The position numbers and the translations under genes were made by a program. A model generated the notes under the pieces. The model saw nothing but the letters and a program-made list of their open reading frames with translations, searched no databases and was not told the DNA's origin. This document shows positions 20,139 to 30,502 of a DNA stretch of 39,583 nucleotides, one piece after another. The stretch's first letter is position 1; the number at the start of each line of letters is the position of its first letter. Source of the stretch: Planctomycetales bacterium (GTDB lineage: Bacteria > Planctomycetota > Planctomycetia > Isosphaerales > Isosphaeraceae); NCBI GenBank assembly GCA_027451885.1, contig DAIDHX010000129.1, positions 1-39,583 of the forward strand, written 5' to 3'.

Positions 20139-22103
20139 GTGGACCAAGAGCGGGACCAAGCGACCGGTTCGAGCCAGGCGCAGAATGCGGAGGTCGAAGC
20201 CGCCCCCGCACCGCGATTTGCGTTGCTTTCCTGGCTATTCGGCGAGCGGTTCGATATCGAGCTGCCGGCTTTTCTGGTAAGCATGACGATTCACGGGCTG
20301 TTGCTTGTCAGCCTGGCGTTCGCCGGATACACGGTGCATCGCCATGCTGAGAGCGAGTTTACGGCTCGGATGCCGGACGAGACAATTCTTTCTGATTCGA
20401 CATACCAGGACATCGATCAGGCGGTCGACGCGCCTTCGAATACGCCGCAGGCGGGTTCGTTCGCGCCCGAGCTGGCGTCCACCATCAGCTCGGCGCCCAG
20501 CACCACCGCCGCCGTCCCGGTGACGAGCAAGGATCCCTCGAGCGGGAGCTCGGTCGACCTGGTAAAGCTCGACGTTCAGCGCGCGACCGAAATCGTGGCC
20601 CCCACGGCCCGGCTGCTGGGGCAGGCGGTGTCGATCCAGGGCGAAGGGGCCGAGTTCGTCGGCGGCGTGGAAGGGGCGGTCGACCGGATCAGCATCGAGA
20701 TCATGCGCCGGCTCGAGCAAGGGCGCACCCTGGTGGTCTGGGCGTTCGACGCCTCCGGCAGCTTGAAGGCCGAGCGTGAGCGGCTCGTCAAGCATATCGA
20801 TACGGTCTACACCCACATCGCCCGGATGGACGAGTCGCAGCTCACCGCGAATAACGGCCTGCTCACGATGGTTGTCGCCTTCGGCAAGGACCGCAAGGCG
20901 CTCCTGCCCAGGCCAACCGCCGACAAGACCGAGATCCTGGCCGCCATCGGCAAGGTTCCGCTCGATGAGACAGGCATTGAGTCCACCTTCACGACCGTGG
21001 GCGAGATCGCCCGCAACTGGGGCCGCCATCGAGACGCCAGCAATCAGTTCTATCACACCATGGTCATTGTGGTGACGGACGAGGTCGGCGATGACGAGGC
21101 CCGGCTGGAAGAGGCCATCGCAATCGCCCAGAAGACCAAAACCTCGGTCTATGTGCTGGGATCGCAGGCCCTCTTCGGCCGCACCGAGGGGTTTGTCGAC
21201 TATGTCGATCCCAGGACCAAATACGTCTTCCACAATCTTCCGGTACGCCAGGGACCGGAAAGCGTGGCGCTCGAGATGATCCATCTGCCGTTCTGGTACG
21301 GTGGGCCGCAGTATGAAATCGTGGAATCAGGGTTCGGCCCCTGGGCGCTGAGCCGGCTGGCAACGGCGACGGGGGGGGTTTACTTCGTCACCCGCTTCGA
21401 CAAGCAACGCATGGGCTTCGACCCCGCGCGGATGCGGGAATACAAGCCTGACTGGTTCTCCCGGGCCGAGTACGAGCGGCGGCTTGAAAAATCCCCGCTT
21501 CGCCAGGCCATCCTGCACGCCGCCCTGGTGACACAGCAGAAGCTCCCCGGCATGCCTCCGCTTGGCTTCCCGCCGGCCGCCGAACAGGCTTTCAAGGACG
21601 CCATGGCCAACGGCCAGTCGCTCGCCGAACGCACGGTTTACACGGTCGATGAGGCCCTGGGCCCGATTAACGCCACGGCCAAGCTGCGCGATCGCGAGAG
21701 CTCCCGCCGCTGGCAAGCGCACTACGATTTAATCCGAGGCCGCTTGCTTGCCATGAAGGTGCGCTGCTACGAATACAACTGGGCGTGCGCGCGAATGAAG
21801 AAAAATCCTCCGAAATTCAAGAATGCCAAGTCGAACGCCTGGCGGCTTGCCCCAGATACGGCGATCCAGTACAGCGAAAAGGCCGCGTCCGTGGCGCGGG
21901 AGGCGGAATCGCTCCTGAAACGGGTTGTGGACGAACATCCCACAACCCCCTGGGCGCTCCTGGCGGAGCGCGAGCTCAAAAACCCCCTGGGATTCAAATG
22001 GGTGGAAACCTACGTGCCGCCACCCCGAAGGCAGCAAGACGCGGCCCAGGCCAAGATGAAGAAGGCACCCCCGGCCAAGCCGCCCATGTTGCCCAAATTA
22101 TGA
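20139..22103 (+). CDS. Membrane-anchored VWA-domain protein, first paralogue
   Basis: A 654-residue protein starting at GTG with AAGGA eight bases upstream. A cytoplasmic N-terminus is followed by one helix at about 44-64 (AFLVSMTIHGLLLVSLAFAGY), a low-complexity Ser/Thr linker, and a von Willebrand A domain (about 195-350). Its MIDAS is D204-A-S206-G-S208 (FDASGS), with VVTDEVGDD around D314. A helical C-terminal region contains RDRESSRRWQAHYDLIRGRLLAMKVRCYEYNW and HPTTPWALLAEREL, which look TPR-like. It is clearly homologous to the next gene along its length. VWA domains bind protein partners through the metal site, and an envelope scaffold or assembly role is inferred. It is the first gene of a probable four-gene operon. 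Confidence 0.88.
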   Translation: MDQERDQATGSSQAQNAEVEAAPAPRFALLSWLFGERFDIELPAFLVSMTIHGLLLVSLAFAGYTVHRHAESEFTARMPDETILSDSTYQDIDQAVDAPSNTPQAGSFAPELASTISSAPSTTAAVPVTSKDPSSGSSVDLVKLDVQRATEIVAPTARLLGQAVSIQGEGAEFVGGVEGAVDRISIEIMRRLEQGRTLVVWAFDASGSLKAERERLVKHIDTVYTHIARMDESQLTANNGLLTMVVAFGKDRKALLPRPTADKTEILAAIGKVPLDETGIESTFTTVGEIARNWGRHRDASNQFYHTMVIVVTDEVGDDEARLEEAIAIAQKTKTSVYVLGSQALFGRTEGFVDYVDPRTKYVFHNLPVRQGPESVALEMIHLPFWYGGPQYEIVESGFGPWALSRLATATGGVYFVTRFDKQRMGFDPARMREYKPDWFSRAEYERRLEKSPLRQAILHAALVTQQKLPGMPPLGFPPAAEQAFKDAMANGQSLAERTVYTVDEALGPINATAKLRDRESSRRWQAHYDLIRGRLLAMKVRCYEYNWACARMKKNPPKFKNAKSNAWRLAPDTAIQYSEKAASVAREAESLLKRVVDEHPTTPWALLAERELKNPLGFKWVETYVPPPRRQQDAAQAKMKKAPPAKPPMLPKL

Positions 22104-22189
22104 GAATCGATCGAGGTTCGGCAGGCTTTTGACTGTTCTGATGGATTCAGAGTCGCCAAGCGTCGCCGACTGACGAGGGTCGTCGAACC

Positions 22190-24400
22190 ATGGAAACGCC
22201 CGTTCCTGTTCCGATCTCGAACGATGGCTATGATCTCGAGCCGGTACCGGGTCATCATCCTGGCGGAGTGACCGACGGCGACGTTCAGCTTGACTCTCGG
22301 GGCGGGATCTCCACCGATCGTACGCTGCTCGTGGAATCAGCTCTGGTTCCCGCAGCCCCCGTATCTTCACCATCTGCCGCGGCCGGGAATGGCGCGGCGG
22401 GGGATGCAAAAGGCGCGGCGGGGGATGCAAAAGGTGCGGCCTCGGCCGCCAAGGAAGCTCCCGCCAGGCCCAAACCGCGCCGACTTCGCGGCCGGGCGCG
22501 CATCGCGTACCTGCTCCAGGCCTGGAGTGTTTCGCTGGTCGTTCATGCCGTGATTCTCACGGCTCTGGCCGCCGCGACGTTCACCTCGCAGGACGCGATC
22601 AACAAGGTGATCAACTTCGACTCGGCGCTCGCCTCGTATCACAACGGCGAGCCCGAAATGCTGCCGATTTACGCTGATCCGGATAATTCGCCGCGTGATC
22701 GCGCGGTGGGCGACGAGAACGCGGAGAAGTCGGGCGAGCCGCAGCAGGTGACGATGTCGGAAGACGACGGTGGCGAGGAAGGGGGCGGCATGGTGACCTC
22801 GGTCGGCGTGGCCGGCCGGCCCACGGCGACGCCACGAATCAAGGGCGCGGGCAAGGGGCGCATCAACGAGGGAACGAGTCTGCCTGGCGTGAAGATCGAC
22901 GGCCTGGGAAGCTCACCGCTGACGATGTTGCCCGCCAGCCCGGCGGCCGATCTGGGAGGCGGCGGCAAGATCGCCGGCGACCCCATCTTCGACGTCAAGG
23001 AAATCGGCAACGCGCTCGATCAGCTTGCACGCGAGATCCTTCGCCATCTCAAGGATCACAAGCTCACAGTCGTATGGATGTTCGATGAATCGTTCAGCAT
23101 GGAAGATGATAAGCAAACGATCAAGCAGAAATTCGACCGTGTTTCGAGCGAGCTCAAGGTGAATGTGGACAACGACAAGAAAGCCAAAGGCGCGCTCAAC
23201 CACATCATCGCCGGCTTTGGCCAGGGCTTTCAGTACGCCCTGGACAAGCCCCAGGAAGACATGGATCAGATCAAGAAGGCGATCGGCAAGTTGAAAATCG
23301 ACACCACGGGCGTCGAGAACACGATGCACGCGATTCGCAAGGTCGTGGAGGACAATGCGCCCAAGATGCGCAAGGATCGCAGGATGGTGATCGTGCTCGT
23401 GACTGACGAGTCAGGTGATGACGGCTCCGACGTCGAGGAGGCGCGGCAGGCGCTCAAGAAGTACAACGTGCCGCTGTATGTGATCGGCCGCCAGGCGATC
23501 TTCGGCTATCCCTTCGCCCATCATCGCTACATCGATCCGGTGACCAAGGACGTCTATCACCCTCTGATCCGCCGCGGGCCTGAGACAGCCGATATCGAGA
23601 TGTACCAGTGGGACGGTCTTTACGATCGCTGGGACGAGCAGCCTTCCGGCTTTGCCCCTTACGAGCTCGCCCGCCTGACGCGCGACAGCGGGGGCATTTA
23701 CTTCGTGCTCCCGAGCGAGGAATTCATGCGGGTTCGGCAGCGCGAGCAGGCGTACTCGATCACCCAGCTCAAGGAGTACTTGCCCGAGTACGACAACCGG
23801 CTGAGCTATTTGGAGAAGCGCAATAGCTCGCCCATGCGGCAAACGATGAGCGCGGTGGTGCAGGAAAGCAGGAGCATGCTCTATCGCCGCGACTTCCCAA
23901 TCACTTCCCAGGAGCTCGTCAAGGCCGCGGTTGAGGAGGGCACGAAGGCAGGTGTGAAGCTCAATCTCTTGCTCGGCTTGCAGACGCGCCTGGAAGGGCT
24001 CAAGAAGTTCCGCGACCGTGAACCTGAGAAGCGCTGGCAGGCCCATTATGACCTCATGCTGGCTCAGACCGTGGCGTTCGAGGTGAAGGCGTTTGAATAT
24101 CGGGCCCTGATGCAATCGATCGTCAAGAAGCCCCCCGCGCCCAAGGGTAAACCTGCCCCGAACATGATGATTACGTGGGTGGTCGACCACTCCAAGACCC
24201 CGTGGGCGTCGAAGGACATGACCGCCAAGAAATACGCCGAGGCTGAGCGGTTGCTGAAGGACGTGATCGCCAAGCATCCCAGGACGCCCTGGGCGGATCT
24301 GGCTCAGGATTCGCTCAATCGCGGGTTCTCGGTGATTCTCAACGAGTGGCACCATAACCCGAAGTATTACGAGCGGGCACAGTACGTGCCGCGCTACTGA
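22190..24400 (+). CDS. Membrane-anchored VWA-domain protein, second paralogue
   Basis: A 736-residue tandem paralogue of the preceding gene. Residues 60-100 are Ala/Gly/Lys-rich, followed by a helix at about 111-131 (AWSVSLVVHAVILTALAAATF), an acidic/Gly linker and a VWA domain (about 292-445). The MIDAS is FDESFS (D299, S301, S303), with VTDESGDDGSD around D406. The C-terminal region has RDREPEKRWQAHYDLMLAQTVAFEVKAFEYR and HPRTPWADLAQDSL, matching the first paralogue. The ATG at 22190 has a weak GAGGGT upstream. It is 86 bp after the first paralogue and only 5 bp before the protease gene, so translational coupling to the protease is likely. Confidence 0.88.
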   Translation: METPVPVPISNDGYDLEPVPGHHPGGVTDGDVQLDSRGGISTDRTLLVESALVPAAPVSSPSAAAGNGAAGDAKGAAGDAKGAASAAKEAPARPKPRRLRGRARIAYLLQAWSVSLVVHAVILTALAAATFTSQDAINKVINFDSALASYHNGEPEMLPIYADPDNSPRDRAVGDENAEKSGEPQQVTMSEDDGGEEGGGMVTSVGVAGRPTATPRIKGAGKGRINEGTSLPGVKIDGLGSSPLTMLPASPAADLGGGGKIAGDPIFDVKEIGNALDQLAREILRHLKDHKLTVVWMFDESFSMEDDKQTIKQKFDRVSSELKVNVDNDKKAKGALNHIIAGFGQGFQYALDKPQEDMDQIKKAIGKLKIDTTGVENTMHAIRKVVEDNAPKMRKDRRMVIVLVTDESGDDGSDVEEARQALKKYNVPLYVIGRQAIFGYPFAHHRYIDPVTKDVYHPLIRRGPETADIEMYQWDGLYDRWDEQPSGFAPYELARLTRDSGGIYFVLPSEEFMRVRQREQAYSITQLKEYLPEYDNRLSYLEKRNSSPMRQTMSAVVQESRSMLYRRDFPITSQELVKAAVEEGTKAGVKLNLLLGLQTRLEGLKKFRDREPEKRWQAHYDLMLAQTVAFEVKAFEYRALMQSIVKKPPAPKGKPAPNMMITWVVDHSKTPWASKDMTAKKYAEAERLLKDVIAKHPRTPWADLAQDSLNRGFSVILNEWHHNPKYYERAQYVPRY
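22391..22432 (+). repeat. In-frame 21-bp tandem duplication
   Basis: Two identical 21-bp units (22391-22411 and 22412-22432) each encode GAAGDAK in the linker before the membrane helix of the second VWA protein. A third, diverged unit (GAASAAK) follows. This is recent slippage in a low-complexity spacer. Confidence 0.9.
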
Positions 24401-24405
24401 GCCGC

Positions 24406-26442
24406 GTGAAGATGGCGGCTTCCGTGCCAACCGTGGCTGGGGCTACTTCCGTGCGTCTCGGCCAGGAAAATCTGCTCACGTGGGTTGAAGGTCTCGCGGA
24501 GCTCAGGGCACTCAGTCTGGGCGATCCTCGGATTGTCATTGCGATCCTGGATGGCCCGGTGGATTTTGCCCATCCCGTGCTTGCGCGTTCCCGGCTCGAG
24601 CAGCTTGAGCCGCCCCTGGGGGTTGGTCCGGCCGGACCAGCACTTCGGCACGGCACGATGGTGGCGAGCCTCATTTTCGGTCGCTCAGCGCCTGGGCTGG
24701 CGGTGGAAGGAGTCGCGCCTGATTGCCGAGGGTTGATCATCCCCCTCTTCGAGGATGGTCCAGATGAGCCGGCAGGGGAGCTTCCGCGGCCTCACACCAG
24801 CCAGTTCGAGCTTGCGCGTGCGATTGCGAGAGCGGTCGACGCGGGGGCGTCGATCATCAACGTCAGCGCGGGTGAGCCCGCGGTCAGCGGAGATTGCCAT
24901 CCCGTGCTCAGGAGGGCGGTGGCGCGTGCCAGGCGCAAGGGCGTGCTGATTGTGGCGGCGCTTGGAAATGAACGCCATGAAGAGCGCCAGATGCCCGCGG
25001 CGATGCCGGGTGTGGTTGCAGTCGGCGCCTGGCCCACAGGCGGAGAACGGGGCGCCCATGCTCAGCCTTCGGAACAGGGTCCGGGTGCTCTGCCTTCGGT
25101 TGGAAAAGCCACGTGCATCGTCGCTCCCGGCCACGGTCTTCTGGCCGCGCTGCCGGGCGGCGGCGTGGGGCATGCCTCGGGAACAAGCTATGCCACGGCG
25201 ATCGTCTCTGGCGTCGCAGGTCTGCTCGCCAGTTTCGCTCTCAAGCGCCAGGTGAGGCTCTCGAGCGAACAGATACGGGAGATTTTGCTTGACTCAGCAC
25301 AGGTGCGCCTTGATGATTCGGATTCGTTACGATTCTGTCAGGCGGGTCGGTTAAATCTCAAACGCGCGATGGTCCTGATGACCAGGCGAGGACTCGCCAT
25401 GAGCGACGAAGTGATGTCGCCCCGAGCTGGGACTGAGAACATTGTGGACGCCAGCAATCTGATTCCAGGCGATGGGGCCAGGGTGCACGATCCCGCACCA
25501 GGTGTGATCGGCGTGGGCCCGGCTGGCGATGGGGGCTGCGGCTGCACATCCTGCAAGGCGAAGGAAGCCGCCAGAAGCTGCGGTTGTGCCTCATGCCGGG
25601 GACTTGCGTCGGCCGAGGGGCACGGCAAACTGGTGTTTGCCATCGGTCAGCTTGGCTACGACCTGATGTCGGAGGCACGCAGGGATTCGATCCAGCAAGC
25701 GATGATCGTCCCTGGTCAGCCGGCGAAGAGCCCGTACGATCCCGCGGATTTTCTCGAGTATTTGCGCGTAAATCCCTGGGAAGCCTCGTCTGTGGTCTGG
25801 ACGCTCAATTTTGACCTCACGCCGCTTTATGCGGTTGTGCCTTCGGGTCCTTTCGCGGCCCGTGCGTTTGAGCTTTTGCGAGAGTTTCTCGCTGAACAGG
25901 CGCAAGGGAAGGTGGAGCAAGTTTCGATCCCGGGCAGAATTGTGGGTCGGGCGCGGCTGCAATCGGGGCAGGTGGTTCCGGCGGTTGCGCCTGAACCTCG
26001 GGGCATGTTTAGCTGGACGACCGAGGCGCTTGTGGCCGCTGTGGCGGGGTCGCCTCCCGCGACAGGCGCGCCTGTGAATGTGGTGGAAGCATACGCCCAG
26101 CGCACGGGATTGGTGCGTGGGTTCCTGCAAAAGGTGTATCACGAGCTGCGGAACCTGGGGGCGACGGCCGAGGAACGCGCAGTGAACTTCGCGGCAACGA
26201 ATGCCTTTCAACTGGGGCAGATCTCGGCGGAGCTTGCGCGTGAAGTCATGGAGCTGGACAGCATCGAGGTCGAGCGCAGCCCAATCTGCCGGCCCGAATC
26301 GGACTGCTGGGACGTGAAAATCCTCTTTTTTTATCCGAACCGGCCGCATCCCGCGCCTCGCAAGGTTTACCGCTTCACGGTTGATGTGAGCGACGTGGTG
26401 CCGGTGCTGGTCGGTCCAATGCGAGCGTGGTCGGTGCGTTAG
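24406..26442 (+). CDS. PatA/PatG-type subtilisin protease with C-terminal PatG domain
   Basis: A 678-residue S8 serine protease of the cyanobactin maturation protease family. The subtilisin domain spans about 40-320: IAILDGPVDFAHP (Asp49), RHGTMVASLIFG (His82), AALGNE (N188, oxyanion region) and ASGTSYATAIVSG (Ser261), so the triad is intact. A Cys-rich hinge has CGCTSC (378-383) and CGCASC (392-397). The C-terminal part (about 408-678) is PatG-like: LVFAIGQLGYDLMSEARRDS, NPWEASSVVWTLNFDLTPLYAV, VSIPGRIVGRARLQSGQVVP, RGMFSWTTEAL, GLVRGFLQKVYHELRNLG. In cyanobactin pathways PatA removes the leader and PatG macrocyclises. Which applies here is unknown. The start could be GTG 24406 or ATG 24412. 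There is no ribosome binding site, but it begins 5 bp after the previous stop. No signal peptide. Confidence 0.9.
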   Translation: MKMAASVPTVAGATSVRLGQENLLTWVEGLAELRALSLGDPRIVIAILDGPVDFAHPVLARSRLEQLEPPLGVGPAGPALRHGTMVASLIFGRSAPGLAVEGVAPDCRGLIIPLFEDGPDEPAGELPRPHTSQFELARAIARAVDAGASIINVSAGEPAVSGDCHPVLRRAVARARRKGVLIVAALGNERHEERQMPAAMPGVVAVGAWPTGGERGAHAQPSEQGPGALPSVGKATCIVAPGHGLLAALPGGGVGHASGTSYATAIVSGVAGLLASFALKRQVRLSSEQIREILLDSAQVRLDDSDSLRFCQAGRLNLKRAMVLMTRRGLAMSDEVMSPRAGTENIVDASNLIPGDGARVHDPAPGVIGVGPAGDGGCGCTSCKAKEAARSCGCASCRGLASAEGHGKLVFAIGQLGYDLMSEARRDSIQQAMIVPGQPAKSPYDPADFLEYLRVNPWEASSVVWTLNFDLTPLYAVVPSGPFAARAFELLREFLAEQAQGKVEQVSIPGRIVGRARLQSGQVVPAVAPEPRGMFSWTTEALVAAVAGSPPATGAPVNVVEAYAQRTGLVRGFLQKVYHELRNLGATAEERAVNFAATNAFQLGQISAELAREVMELDSIEVERSPICRPESDCWDVKILFFYPNRPHPAPRKVYRFTVDVSDVVPVLVGPMRAWSVR

Positions 26443-26492
26443 TTCGGGGTCGTGAATCGATTCCGGAATGCTCCAACAGTTGTGAGGCGATC

Positions 26493-26693
26493 ATGAGACT
26501 GCCCCATCTTTCGGCTGCCTCGATCGGTCTGAGCGGCAATCGCGGAGACCGTTTTCGCGGCGCGATTCGCCTTCGAGAAGGCAACACGGTTCCGCGGTGC
26601 GACGAGTCATGCGATGGCGGCGTGATGAATCTTCCTTGCCCCGTTGAATGCCCCTGCCAGAACGTCAACGGCAACTGGATTTGCAAGCGTTGA
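26493..26693 (+). CDS. Cys-rich 66-aa peptide, candidate substrate of the PatG-type protease
   Basis: A small protein beginning MRLPHLSAASIGLSGNRG, with GAGG five bases before the ATG. It has no Cys in residues 1-35 and six in the rest: C36, C40, C49, C53, C55, C64. The spacing is C-x3-C-x8-C-x3-C-x-C-x8-C, so CDESC and CPVEC form a quasi-repeat, each set followed by an 8-residue gap to the next Cys. The split into a Cys-free N-terminus and a Cys-rich end resembles leader and core of a ribosomal peptide precursor. It starts 50 bp after the protease gene. It lacks the usual cyanobactin recognition motifs, and no YcaO cyclase is nearby, so disulfide, thioether or metal use of the Cys is open. 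Substrate status is inference from position and size. A frame-compatible upstream ATG at 26427 overlaps the protease gene. Confidence 0.7.
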   Translation: MRLPHLSAASIGLSGNRGDRFRGAIRLREGNTVPRCDESCDGGVMNLPCPVECPCQNVNGNWICKR

Positions 26694-26725: not shown

Positions 26726-29700
26726 TTAGTGCTTGACGCTGGGTTCCTCCGCGCGCCAGTAACGCACCGTGTGGTCGCCGCCGCAGGAAGCGAGCGTGCG
26801 CCCGTCAGGGGAGAATTGCGCGCACCAGACGGATCGCGAGTGCCCGCGGAGAACAAGAAGCTCAAGTCCGAGCGCAGGATTCCAGATGCGGATCGTACGA
26901 TCGATGCTGGCGGAGGCCAACCGTGATCCATCGTGCGAGAAGTGCAAACGATGAGGCGTGGTCGCGTGCCCAGCCAGGCGCTGGAGCGGCAACCCCGTGG
27001 CCCGATCCCAGATTGTGATGACAGAAGAAAAGCCGGAGGTGGCGATCAATTTGCCATCCGCGCTTTCATCCATGCCCACGATCCCATCCGGCTCGAGCGC
27101 CTGTGTCTGCTTGCGCAGACCTGAGTCGAGATCCCAGGTGATGGCGAAGCCGTCATCACCGCCGGAAAGCAGAGATTTGCCCCCGGGCTCGAAGATGAGA
27201 TGATTCACCTTGCCGGGATGGCCGGCGAGTGTTCGATCGAGCGTTCCATCGGCCACGTTCCAGAGCCGGATGGTTCGATCGTCTGATCCCGAAGCGAGTC
27301 TTGCGCCTGTGGCATCGAAGGCGAGCGCGAAGACGGCCGCGGAATGCCCTTTGAGCGTGTGCAACAGCGTTCCGGAGCTTGCTTCCCAGAGTCGAACGGC
27401 GGCGTCATCGCCCGCGGCCGCGACCAGGCGGCCGTCCGGGCTGATTGTGACGACCCGTTGCCGCTGATTCGCGGCGAAGGTGCGAATCCTGCGTCCTGAG
27501 CTGGGATCCGAGAGCTGGATCATGCCGTCCAGGCAAGCGGCCGCGGCGAACGATCCATCTGGCGCGAAGGCGACATCCCAGGGTGTCGCGGGGTGTTCAA
27601 GGAGTGTGGATTCCTGGTCCTGGTCGCGGTGCCAGACGCGAATGCTGGAATCGCTCGAGCAGGAGGCCATTCGGTCGCTACGATCGGGAGCAAACACAAC
27701 TCCCGTGACCACGCCAGGATGGCCGCGGAACACGCGAGAGACCCGCGCGGCGGCCACATCCCAGAGCTCGACGCCTCTGTCAGAGACGCGCACACAGGCG
27801 ATGGTTCTGCCATCGGGAGCATAGGCGAGCGCACGGATGGAATCAGGATGATGCGGGTCAAAAAGCAACCCGCGGGGCGCCCCGCTCGCGAGATCGCGGA
27901 TCTTGATCGAGCCGTCTTCGCCTGCGGTTGCAACCGTTGCGCCATCAGGTGCAAGTGCTATGACATGACTGTTTGTTGTTGCGTCAGCGATCGTTTTGAT
28001 CAGGGCGCCGGTTTCCGCGTTGCGGATGCGCAGTGCCGTGGGGATGCCGCCGGCGGTGAGCACCAGGCGGCCGTCGATCGAGAAGATCGCGTTCACGCCG
28101 TAGCCTTTGGGATGATTTTCCTGCCGCCAGAGGAGCGTCTGGGAAGCGGCATCCCAGAGGCGGATCGTGCCATCAAAACCGGAAGAAAGGATGCGCCTGC
28201 CATCGGGTGAATAGCGGGCGCTCTGGATGTTCGCGCCATGCCCTTTGAGGGTTTGGAAGATCTGGCCGGTTCCCAGATCCCAGATGGTGAGTCCTGGTCC
28301 TGGTCCTGCGCCGAGCAGGCGCTCGCCGTGCGGGTCGAAATCCAGGTCGTTGACGATCCCGCCGGCTGCGATCTTGCGAATTCCCTGCCCGGTCGCGGCA
28401 TCCCAGATTTTGATGGTTTTATCGCGGCCGACGGCGGCGATGCGGCGGCCGTCTCGGGAGTAAGTCAGGCCGCCCAAGCCCGCATCGTCGTCGTCGATCT
28501 TGAAATTGCTGGTCCTTAGGAGCCGATTGAGATAGTGCCATTCGAAGCCGCGGAGATCGGGATTTCCGGGCGCGGGGGCGGCGGCCTTGAGCGCGCGCTC
28601 GACCCCCTGGATGTTGGCATCGCGCCAGTCGCGCTCGGCGAGTCGAATATTGGCGGCATAGGCGAGCCCCAGGGCGCTCAGCTCGCTGGCGCGTGCGGCC
28701 GCTTTTTGGTCCCGCGCGACGACGAGTGCGGCCTGGAGCTTCTTGCCCAGGCTGATCGCCGCGCGCCATTGCCAGACCACGCCGCAGGCGCCGGCTGCGG
28801 CGATGAGGGCGATCAAGGCGAGACTCGCGGCCAGGCCGCGGCGGCGGCGAACGAATCGGACGACTCGCTCGGACGCGGAAACCGGGCGCGCCAGAATCGG
28901 CACCCCGTCGATCAGGCGCTCGAGATCAAGCGCCAGCTCAAGCGCGGAAGCGTAGCGCTTGTGTGGATCCTTCTCGAGACACTTGAGGCAAATGAGCTCG
29001 AGATCGGGATGAACCCGGGTGTTGCGGAGACGAGGTCGCAAGGGATCGTTCTCGATCACCTGCTTCATGAGCTCGACGGGCGAAGCCGCCTGGAAGGGCG
29101 CGCAGCCGCAAATCAGGGCGTAGAGCACAGCGCCCAGGCCGTAAACATCGCTTGCGATCGTCACCTGGTCGCGCTCGCCCCTGGCCTGTTCGGGGGACAT
29201 GTAGCTCAGAGTGCCGACGATCGAGGCCCCCTGGTAGAGCGAATCGCCTTCACCCGAGGCGCGCCTGGCGAGGCCGAAGTCGATCAGGTGGGGCAGCCCA
29301 TCGCCGTCGATCAGGATATTGGAGGGCTTGAGATCGCGATGCAGAACTCCGCGCTCGTGTGCATGGTGGAGAGCCCGCGCAATCCGGGCCATGATGTCCG
29401 CGATCTTGTTTTGATTGCCGTTGATCTGCTCGAGCGCGGCGTGGAGGTTGCGGCCCTCGATGAGCTTCATGCTGAAGAAGATGAGCCCTGCGTACTCGCC
29501 GATGTCGAGGATGGGAACGATGGAGGAATGGTCGAGCGCGGCGGCGGCTTCCGCTTCCCGCTTGAAGAGCTGAATCTCGCGCGGGGTGGCATGAACGCCC
29601 GTGCGAATGACCTTGAGCGCGACGTCGCGCCCCAGGCGCCGTTGCCGCGCGCGAAACACACTGCCCATGCCGCCGTGCCCGAGCAGGCCGAGAATCTGGT

Positions 29701-30286
29701 AATCCCCGATCACACACCCGGGAGACAGGGAAACCACGGGATAACGCAGGGGAGATGTTGGGGTATCGCACGCGAATTCCGCTGCCCCTGGCTCCTGCGG
29801 CTCGAGGGCGCCCGCGTGAGTGGACTCGAGCCCGTTGGCGCGATCACCGCCGTCGACCTGCCAGGGATCAGAGTCGGTTCGCGGCGGACAGTGCTCGGAA
29901 TCTCCATTCGTTCCCTGCTTCCGGCGGATCCACTCAGCGACATCCGGGTCGCCGTTCGCAACCGTTGCGCCTCGCGTTTGCTCGGAGCGATAGAGCCCGA
30001 GATCCGTGGACATCGGCAAGAAAACCGTCTGGCTGGGATTCGCGCCGGTTCGCTGCTGGTCTTGCTGGGTGCCCAGACCCGAGCGCTCGCGCAGCTCGTG
30101 GTCGATCAATTGCAGCTCAAGTCGCAGCACCGCCTGATGCGGAGCCGCGATCTGCGACACATAGGGCTCAATTTCCGGCGGAGCCGAGACATTCCATTCG
30201 GCCTCGAATCGATCGCAAATCAGGTCGATGCTCTCCAGCAGATCAACCGAGAGATCGTTCCACTCAGGCACGTGTTTGAGACTCAT
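26726..30286 (-). CDS. Ser/Thr protein kinase with WD40 beta-propeller tail
   Basis: A 1186-residue planctomycete-type receptor kinase. A divergent N-terminal region (1-190) is followed by the kinase domain (about 195-460): GHGGMGSVFRARQ (P-loop), VALKV (K225), HRDLKPSN (catalytic loop, 316-323), DFGLAR (336-341) and YMSPEQARGE. All key residues are present. One membrane helix lies at about 485-507 (LAASLALIALIAAAGACGVVW). A linker helix and at least a dozen WD40 repeats (from about 580 to the end) follow, with units such as KTIKIWDAATG, GTIRLWDA and RTIRIWNPA. The start at 30286 (MSLKHVPEW) fits the usual N-terminus of these kinases that follow an ECF sigma gene. A longer in-frame start exists at 30403. 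It likely forms a signalling pair with the upstream sigma factor. Confidence 0.93.
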   Translation of the reverse strand: MSLKHVPEWNDLSVDLLESIDLICDRFEAEWNVSAPPEIEPYVSQIAAPHQAVLRLELQLIDHELRERSGLGTQQDQQRTGANPSQTVFLPMSTDLGLYRSEQTRGATVANGDPDVAEWIRRKQGTNGDSEHCPPRTDSDPWQVDGGDRANGLESTHAGALEPQEPGAAEFACDTPTSPLRYPVVSLSPGCVIGDYQILGLLGHGGMGSVFRARQRRLGRDVALKVIRTGVHATPREIQLFKREAEAAAALDHSSIVPILDIGEYAGLIFFSMKLIEGRNLHAALEQINGNQNKIADIMARIARALHHAHERGVLHRDLKPSNILIDGDGLPHLIDFGLARRASGEGDSLYQGASIVGTLSYMSPEQARGERDQVTIASDVYGLGAVLYALICGCAPFQAASPVELMKQVIENDPLRPRLRNTRVHPDLELICLKCLEKDPHKRYASALELALDLERLIDGVPILARPVSASERVVRFVRRRRGLAASLALIALIAAAGACGVVWQWRAAISLGKKLQAALVVARDQKAAARASELSALGLAYAANIRLAERDWRDANIQGVERALKAAAPAPGNPDLRGFEWHYLNRLLRTSNFKIDDDDAGLGGLTYSRDGRRIAAVGRDKTIKIWDAATGQGIRKIAAGGIVNDLDFDPHGERLLGAGPGPGLTIWDLGTGQIFQTLKGHGANIQSARYSPDGRRILSSGFDGTIRLWDAASQTLLWRQENHPKGYGVNAIFSIDGRLVLTAGGIPTALRIRNAETGALIKTIADATTNSHVIALAPDGATVATAGEDGSIKIRDLASGAPRGLLFDPHHPDSIRALAYAPDGRTIACVRVSDRGVELWDVAAARVSRVFRGHPGVVTGVVFAPDRSDRMASCSSDSSIRVWHRDQDQESTLLEHPATPWDVAFAPDGSFAAAACLDGMIQLSDPSSGRRIRTFAANQRQRVVTISPDGRLVAAAGDDAAVRLWEASSGTLLHTLKGHSAAVFALAFDATGARLASGSDDRTIRLWNVADGTLDRTLAGHPGKVNHLIFEPGGKSLLSGGDDGFAITWDLDSGLRKQTQALEPDGIVGMDESADGKLIATSGFSSVITIWDRATGLPLQRLAGHATTPHRLHFSHDGSRLASASIDRTIRIWNPALGLELLVLRGHSRSVWCAQFSPDGRTLASCGGDHTVRYWRAEEPSVKH

Positions 30287-30502
30287 GACCAGGACCTTGC
30301 GCCGGGATTCCAGCCGTCTTCGTTGGGAGCTCCGGCCCCGTTGGCCAGACCTTGACCCAACAGCCAAACGCCACGCACGCACGCATCGGCCTTGATGCCG
30401 CATTTCGCGATCTTTACCAGGATGCTTGCCGTTGCGAGGAACGACGCGACATCGGTTCCCGATTTTTCGCGCGAAGGCGGAGTGAAGGTCCGTCAGCGCG
30501 GC

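What the first reader, a model, noticed from the sequence alone, without database searches (positions are those of the whole stretch)
20139..26693. Candidate undescribed operon: two VWA membrane proteins, a PatG-type protease and a Cys-rich peptide
Four same-strand genes with gaps of 86, 5 and 49 bp combine two paralogous membrane VWA proteins, a protease of the cyanobactin maturation family, and a 66-aa peptide with six clustered cysteines. PatA/PatG proteases are known for leader removal and macrocyclisation in cyanobactin pathways. Here there is no YcaO cyclase, PatB/C or classical precursor. I infer a non-canonical peptide maturation or envelope-delivery system, with the VWA proteins as membrane scaffold. 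I know of no described system with this composition.
Basis: partly seen in the sequence, partly recalled or inferred. Interest (0 to 1): 0.88.

Follow-up and report, generated by a model that had tools for sequence, protein, structure and literature searches.

The report
Stand-alone cyanobactin-type protease with tagged peptides
This planctomycete carries a small two-gene unit, a protease of the kind that trims cyanobactin peptides plus a cysteine-rich peptide with a worn version of the cyanobactin tag, and the same unit without the usual modifying enzymes turns up in cyanobacteria, Streptomyces and other bacteria, so cyanobactins look like one branch of a wider tag-and-cut peptide system.

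Summary
The four genes are real and same-strand, but not one functional unit. The VWA pair is core equipment of the bacterial family: VWA1 is in 44 of 45 genomes, the protease in 7. In same-genus G448 protease and peptide lie away from the VWA pair; in G479 the protease is broken beside an intact pair. The functional unit is protease plus peptide. The protease is PatA-type (TIGR03895, 511 bits; triad intact; no YcaO in the genome). Relatives in Planctomycetes, Cyanobacteria, an alphaproteobacterial MAG and Streptomyces plasmids also stand alone, followed by small ORFs sharing the leader motif [L/M]PxxxxPVxR with cyanobactin precursors and PatB. A matrix trained only on cyanobacterial leaders recovers them (14/180 ORFs just downstream, 1/2,834 elsewhere; Streptomyces 8/29 versus 0/191). 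Most carry a PatA-like cleavage motif, as do the proteases' own linkers. Best reading: tag-guided leader removal without heterocyclisation, releasing Cys-rich, short hydrophobic or phospholipase-A2-like products. The window's own peptide has a worn leader and no consensus site; its assignment rests on same-genus orthologues. The motif was first seen in these loci, so the tests are not blind. Cleavage and function are untested.

The parts
24406..26442 (+). Stand-alone PatA-type cyanobactin maturation protease (678 aa): S8 domain, disordered linker, PatG DUF
   Evidence: TIGR03895 511 bits, Peptidase_S8, PatG_D, PatG_C; PatA domain 178 bits versus PatG macrocyclase 76; AlphaFold and Foldseek
24532..25308 (+). 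S8 catalytic domain, residues 43-301, triad Asp49, His82, Ser261
   Evidence: Pfam span; invariant columns D49, H82, S261
25390..25614 (+). Linker between protease and DUF, residues 329-403, with a Cys cluster (CGCxxC...CGCxxC)
   Evidence: pLDDT below 50; linkers of relatives carry PatA-like sites and C-x-C motifs
25444..25455 (+). Candidate self-cleavage motif VDAS in the linker (prediction)
   Evidence: The one [VILFM]x[PA]S match in this linker; linkers are enriched for it in the family, 88 versus 20.7 in shuffles
25630..26436 (+). PatG DUF (PatG_D + PatG_C), residues 409-677
   Evidence: Pfam; 4uvq 5e-56 by sequence and best Foldseek hit
26493..26693 (+). Precursor-like 66-aa Cys-rich peptide
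   Evidence: Orthologues in G443, G448, G519, G471 at the same place; constraint
26493..26528 (+). Tag region MRLPHLSAASIG, degenerate against [L/M]PxxxxPVxR
   Evidence: Matrix score 0.4 here against 14.3 and 9.1 for the same-genus orthologues; MRLPxLS invariant in five orthologues
26598..26690 (+). Predicted mature Cys-rich part if cut after NTVPR (inference)
   Evidence: Six Cys, C36 to C64; alignment with G443 and G448; no consensus site found
20139..22103 (+). VWA1, membrane-anchored VWA protein; neighbour, not part of the unit
   Evidence: 44/45 family genomes
22190..24400 (+). VWA2, paralogue of VWA1; neighbour, not part of the unit
   Evidence: Follows VWA1 also in protease-free genomes
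26726..30403 (-). Convergent Ser/Thr kinase-WD40 gene, conserved neighbour in seven loci, role unclear
   Evidence: Pfam; synteny

Best explanation
The unit is a stand-alone PatA-type protease plus a tagged precursor peptide. The precursor's N-terminal tag ([L/M]PxxxxPVxR in the family, MRLPxLS in this lineage) marks it for the protease; the protease cuts after a short G[VIL]x[PA]S/Q-type motif and frees the C-terminal part, with no heterocyclase and no macrocyclase encoded nearby. The protease probably also cuts its own linker at similar motifs. Shown: gene content, domains, conservation of the protease-peptide pair, the shared tag, motif enrichment, absence of the usual tailoring genes. Inferred: tag recognition, cut site, autoprocessing, absence of other modifications. 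The product most likely acts outside the cell as an antimicrobial or toxin-like peptide (about 35% on that last point alone). The VWA pair is a neighbour with its own core role.
For: TIGR03895 511 bits and closer to PatA than to the PatG macrocyclase. The peptide follows the protease in same-genus and same-family relatives and is absent from 38 protease-free family genomes save one marginal hit. Leader matrix trained only on cyanobacterial sequences: 14/180 downstream ORFs versus 1/1,675 elsewhere in the loci and 0/1,159 in controls; PatE-only and PatB-only training agree. Streptomyces plasmids 8/29 versus 0/191. Best, sub-threshold NCBIfam hits of four of the cyanobacterial stand-alone peptides are cyanobactin precursor families. 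Site motif in 23 of 28 peptides versus mean 5.6 in shuffles, and in linkers. PatA cuts after G(L/V)E(A/P)S (PMC10885120). PDB title 'self-cleaved protease domain of PatA' for 3zxx. No PatB, PatC, PatD or SagB near stand-alone loci; no RiPP tailoring enzyme among ten neighbours scanned.
Against: The window's own leader scores only 0.4 and its peptide has no consensus site. PatG's DUF did not bind PatE in vitro (PMC4259220), so which domain would read the tag is unknown. Several of the genomes contain YcaO elsewhere, so distant tailoring is not excluded there, though not in the window's genome. No transporter or immunity gene was recognised. G415 and G679 gave no leader-bearing ORF above threshold. 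The motif and site patterns were written after seeing the peptides.
Confidence: 0.68

Rival explanations
1. One reading: a four-gene envelope system in which two membrane VWA proteins scaffold peptide maturation or delivery.
For: Adjacent same-strand genes with a 5-bp gap; full order kept in G519, VWA-VWA-protease in G479.
Against: 37 family genomes have VWA1 without the protease; G448 separates them; G479 keeps the VWA pair beside a broken protease; all other lineages lack the pair.
Confidence: 0.07
2. A cyanobactin-like macrocycle: the single protease both removes the leader and cyclises the product.
For: Same protease family as macrocyclases; cyanobactins without heterocyclase are known (PMC4663559; PMC4603692).
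Against: Closer to PatA, one protease only, far weaker match to the macrocyclase domain; no AYDG- or FAGD-like C-terminal signal in these peptides as in canonical precursors; cores of 30 and more residues with many Cys.
Confidence: 0.1
3. A decaying copy: in this genome the pair is losing function.
For: Degenerate leader, no consensus site, long protease branch (0.81 versus 0.15-0.46), and a broken copy in G479.
Against: Open frames, intact triad, dN/dS about 0.2-0.4 for protease and peptide against G448 and G443, six Cys retained.
Confidence: 0.15

Closest known systems
Cyanobactin pathways (patellamide, anacyclamide, prenylagaramide)
   Same: Protease family, DUF, leader motif of the precursor, PatA-type cleavage motif, several precursors per locus
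   Different: One protease instead of A plus G; no PatB, PatC, PatD or oxidase nearby; long Cys-rich, hydrophobic or phospholipase-A2-like cores; no C-terminal recognition sequence; other phyla
PatB/AcyB/McaB family (TIGR04220), role unknown
   Same: Same N-terminal motif MRLPxLSPPVKR; small, Cys near the C-terminus
   Different: Conserved middle region, no cleavage motif seen; found only in canonical clusters here
Streptomyces scabies SCAB_66631 locus (PMC7369419) and a lone cyanobactin peptidase in Roseomonas (PMC8776678)
   Same: PatG-DUF homologue beside four short peptides; lone peptidase gene
   Different: Mentioned in passing, neither tag nor cleavage motif described; the first was said to match the DUF only
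S8 leader peptidases of lanthipeptides (NisP, ElxP; PMC10885120)
   Same: Subtilisin-type protease removing a leader at a short motif
   Different: No lanthionine enzymes, different leaders, no PatG DUF

Membership tests
PatA/PatG protease family (TIGR03895) | Score above NCBIfam cut-off over the full model | tested here: met
   511.5 bits, model 1-606
PatA/PatG protease family (TIGR03895) | Ser-His-Asp triad | tested here: met
   D49, H82, S261 invariant
Cyanobactins | Precursor with cyanobactin leader | tested here: inconclusive
   Family: yes; window copy degenerate, score 0.4
Cyanobactins | PatA-type cleavage motif G(L/V)E(A/P)S before the core | tested here: inconclusive
   Related motif in 23/28 peptides, absent in the window copy
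Cyanobactins | Two proteases, A and G (macrocyclase) | tested here: not met
   One protease, closer to PatA
Cyanobactins | C-terminal recognition sequence (AYDG, FAGDDAE type) | tested here: not met
   Inspection of the peptides against canonical precursors
Cyanobactins | PatB and PatC in the cluster | tested here: not met
   tblastn negative in the window and all stand-alone loci
Thiazole/oxazole-modified microcins | YcaO cyclodehydratase | tested here: not met
   None in the own genome
RiPPs in general | Chemical modification beyond proteolysis | not testable with these tools
   No conserved tailoring enzyme near the protease; needs mass spectrometry

The most novel reading that the evidence does not exclude
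A widespread, undescribed tag-and-cut peptide system: stand-alone PatA-type proteases with families of [L/M]PxxxxPVxR-tagged cargo (Cys-rich peptides, short hydrophobic peptides, phospholipase-A2-like proteins) in at least Planctomycetes, Cyanobacteria and Actinomycetota, from within which the cyanobactin A/G pathway arose by protease duplication. PatB would be a tagged member, and the proteases would process themselves at the same motif.
Probability: 0.5. Interest if true: 0.8.

Novelty: new variant of a known kind. Interest (0 to 1): 0.62.

Why it matters
Cyanobactins have been sought in cyanobacteria and, in surveys of heterocycle-bearing peptides, through YcaO. This points to many overlooked peptide loci in other phyla with cargo quite unlike cyanobactins. 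It gives testable leads on two open questions: the role of PatB and that of the conserved N-terminal motif of cyanobactin leaders. If the proteases release unmodified peptides or enzymes from a portable tag, the pair is also a very simple activation module.

Tried and rejected
VWA pair as part of the unit: rejected on distribution and synteny. Shared tailoring enzymes: clustering of neighbours and a Pfam scan of ten of them gave only chaperonins, a glycosyltransferase/TPR protein, a porin, a nuclease and the like. TIGR03895 across the phylum was swamped by ordinary S8 proteases, so PatG_C was used. Rooting the protease tree is weak because the outgroup fragments are short. Literature: nothing on planctomycete PatG proteases; searches for cyanobactin + planctomycete, planctomycete RiPPs and 'cyanobactin-like' gave only passing mentions in the papers opened. 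The library holds open-licence papers only, so 'undescribed' is not proven. One two-protein alignment was made by mistake and is ignored. The promoter and terminator scan was uninformative.

Full report
What is there. The four ORFs exist as described: VWA1 20139-22103, VWA2 22190-24400, a PatA/PatG-family protease 24406-26442 and a 66-aa peptide 26493-26693, with gaps of 86, 5 and 50 bp. The protease matches TIGR03895 end to end at 511 bits (cut-off 421) and carries Peptidase_S8, PatG_D and PatG_C. Asp49, His82 and Ser261 are invariant in an alignment of 24 relatives. AlphaFold gives two well-folded domains joined by a disordered linker at 329-403. Foldseek ranks the PatG DUF first and the PagA/PatA protease domains next, ahead of the PatG macrocyclase, in line with the sequence comparison: 178 bits for PatA, 76 for the macrocyclase. 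The genome holds no YcaO.

The VWA pair is a neighbour. PatG_C occurs in 7 of the 45 genomes of the bacterial family and in 17 of 397 of the class, but VWA1 occurs in 44 of the same 45, and VWA2 follows it in nearly all protease-free loci examined. The order VWA1-VWA2-protease-peptide is kept in G519, and VWA1-VWA2-protease in G479. In G479, however, the protease is frameshifted and truncated and no peptide is seen, while both VWA frames are intact (an assembly error cannot be ruled out). In same-genus G448 the block g16588-DUF1501-VWA1-VWA2 lies on one contig without a protease in the next 830 bp, and the protease-peptide-kinase block lies on another contig behind an unrelated glycosyltransferase/TPR gene. 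The VWA proteins also evolve more slowly than the protease (75-80% versus 57% identity, window against G448). The window's arrangement is inherited in part of the family but is not required.

The unit is protease plus peptide. Small downstream ORFs were found at most protease loci. In this lineage they align over MRLPxLS and a Cys-rich C-terminus, and a profile of five of them finds nothing in the 40 other family genomes except one marginal hit, G457 at E 0.004. Those five are the training set, so the informative part is the absence elsewhere. The peptide is under constraint: dN 0.29, dS 0.62 between G448 and G443.

The tag. Across loci the peptides begin roughly M[KRN][LIM]PxxSxxVxR. I noticed this in the planctomycete loci first and then collected cyanobacterial loci. 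In canonical cyanobactin clusters both the precursors (MTKKNIRPQQVAPVER, MEKKNLMPQQAQPIER) and PatB (MRLPKLSPPVKR) carry the motif. Seven cyanobacterial loci have a lone protease with no PatB, PatC, PatD or SagB nearby, followed by peptides such as MNLPIQSKPIFR...GITPSG.... A ten-position matrix trained only on cyanobacterial leaders was scored on the other loci: 14/180 ORFs within 3 kb downstream reach 10 bits, against 1/1,675 elsewhere in those loci and 0/1,159 in control loci (p 6e-17). The single outlier, in G633, looks like a member too. Four training sets at three thresholds were run and all agree. Two Streptomyces plasmid loci give 8/29 against 0/191 (p 4e-8). None of this is blind: the training set excludes the scored peptides, but the motif was already known to me from them, and for Streptomyces I widened the allowed offset after seeing that the tags lie 17-22 residues in. 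ORFs within a locus are not independent, so the p-values overstate precision; the number of loci with a hit, 7-14 depending on training set and threshold, is the safer figure. As an outside check, NCBIfam's best, sub-threshold hits for four of the cyanobacterial stand-alone peptides are the cyanobactin precursor families.

The cut. PatA cuts after G(L/V)E(A/P)S (PMC10885120). A related motif lies between leader and core in 23 of 28 non-cyanobacterial peptides, against a mean of 5.6 and a maximum of 13 in 1,000 shuffles; with a preceding Gly, 14 against 0.7. The 28 were chosen for their leader, and the pattern, with Q and R allowed in the last place, was written after reading them, so this is descriptive. 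The proteases' own linkers carry [VILFM]x[PA]S motifs 88 times against 20.7 +/- 4.5 in composition-preserving shuffles, ten of them directly before a C-x-C motif against about none; this pattern too was suggested by the alignment, and related sequences count repeatedly. PatA is known to self-cleave, to judge by the title of PDB 3zxx. I infer autoprocessing at these motifs; in the window the candidate is VDAS at 25444-25455.

The cargo is diverse. Most planctomycete and some cyanobacterial cores are Cys-rich. G909 and the Streptomyces plasmids carry short hydrophobic, Cys-poor cores of about 10-25 residues. Two planctomycete cargo proteins resemble phospholipase A2 (PF00068 6.7e-5 and PF08398 2.5e-4, both under the curated cut-offs). 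This mix suits secreted antagonistic peptides better than one housekeeping role, but no export or immunity gene was recognised, so that function stays at about 35%. Metal binding by the Cys-rich cores is an alternative.

Evolution. In the tree of full proteases the canonical PatA and PatG sequences form one clade (100/99) inside the cyanobacterial stand-alone sequences; a tree of catalytic domains with outgroups agrees with moderate support (83/76 and 90/82) but weak outgroups. The simplest reading is that the A/G pair arose by duplication of a stand-alone protease.

Caveats for the window itself. Its peptide is among the most degenerate of the set: leader score 0.4, no consensus site. Its protease branch is long. 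The claim for this genome rests on position and on orthology to G448 and G443, whose peptides score 14.3 and 9.1. Most genomes used are metagenome assemblies; the records labelled Nitrososphaerales (L036) and Alphaproteobacteria (L040) may be misbinned.

Novelty. Others have noted a PatG-DUF homologue beside four short peptides in Streptomyces scabies without explaining it (PMC7369419) and a lone cyanobactin peptidase gene in a Roseomonas (PMC8776678). I found no description of the stand-alone protease/tagged-peptide system or of the tag shared with PatB, in a library limited to open-licence papers. I rate it a new variant of a known kind.

Noticed in passing
L124:12559-12774; PatB ORFs in L168, L172-L182: PatB, a cyanobactin-cluster protein without known role, carries the same N-terminal motif (MRLPxLSPPVKR) as the precursors and the stand-alone peptides.
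   Followed up: partly
L061:9913-10470; L066:11318-11785: Two tagged ORFs near planctomycete proteases look like phospholipase A2 domains (PF00068 6.7e-5, PF08398 2.5e-4, both below curated cut-offs), so cargo can be a whole small enzyme.
   Followed up: partly
L189:8761-9608; L190:8613-10526: Streptomyces plasmids carry a lone PatG-DUF S8 protease followed by 3-6 tagged ORFs with short hydrophobic cores after GVEA or G[IV]EPS, annotated as hypothetical proteins.
   Followed up: partly
L164:10100-10532: Two cyanobacterial peptides carry the exact PatA site GVEAS before a 24-25-residue Cys-free core, with no heterocyclase nearby.
   Followed up: no
window 26726-30403: A Ser/Thr kinase-WD40 gene lies convergent behind the peptide in seven loci of two families; whether it is linked in function is unknown.
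   Followed up: partly
window 20139-24400: The VWA1-VWA2 pair is near-universal in this bacterial family (VWA1 in 44/45 genomes), both with a MIDAS-like DxSxS and an N-terminal membrane segment; I know of no described function.
   Followed up: partly
L076:11402-13313: G479 has a frameshifted, truncated protease gene beside an intact VWA pair.
   Followed up: partly
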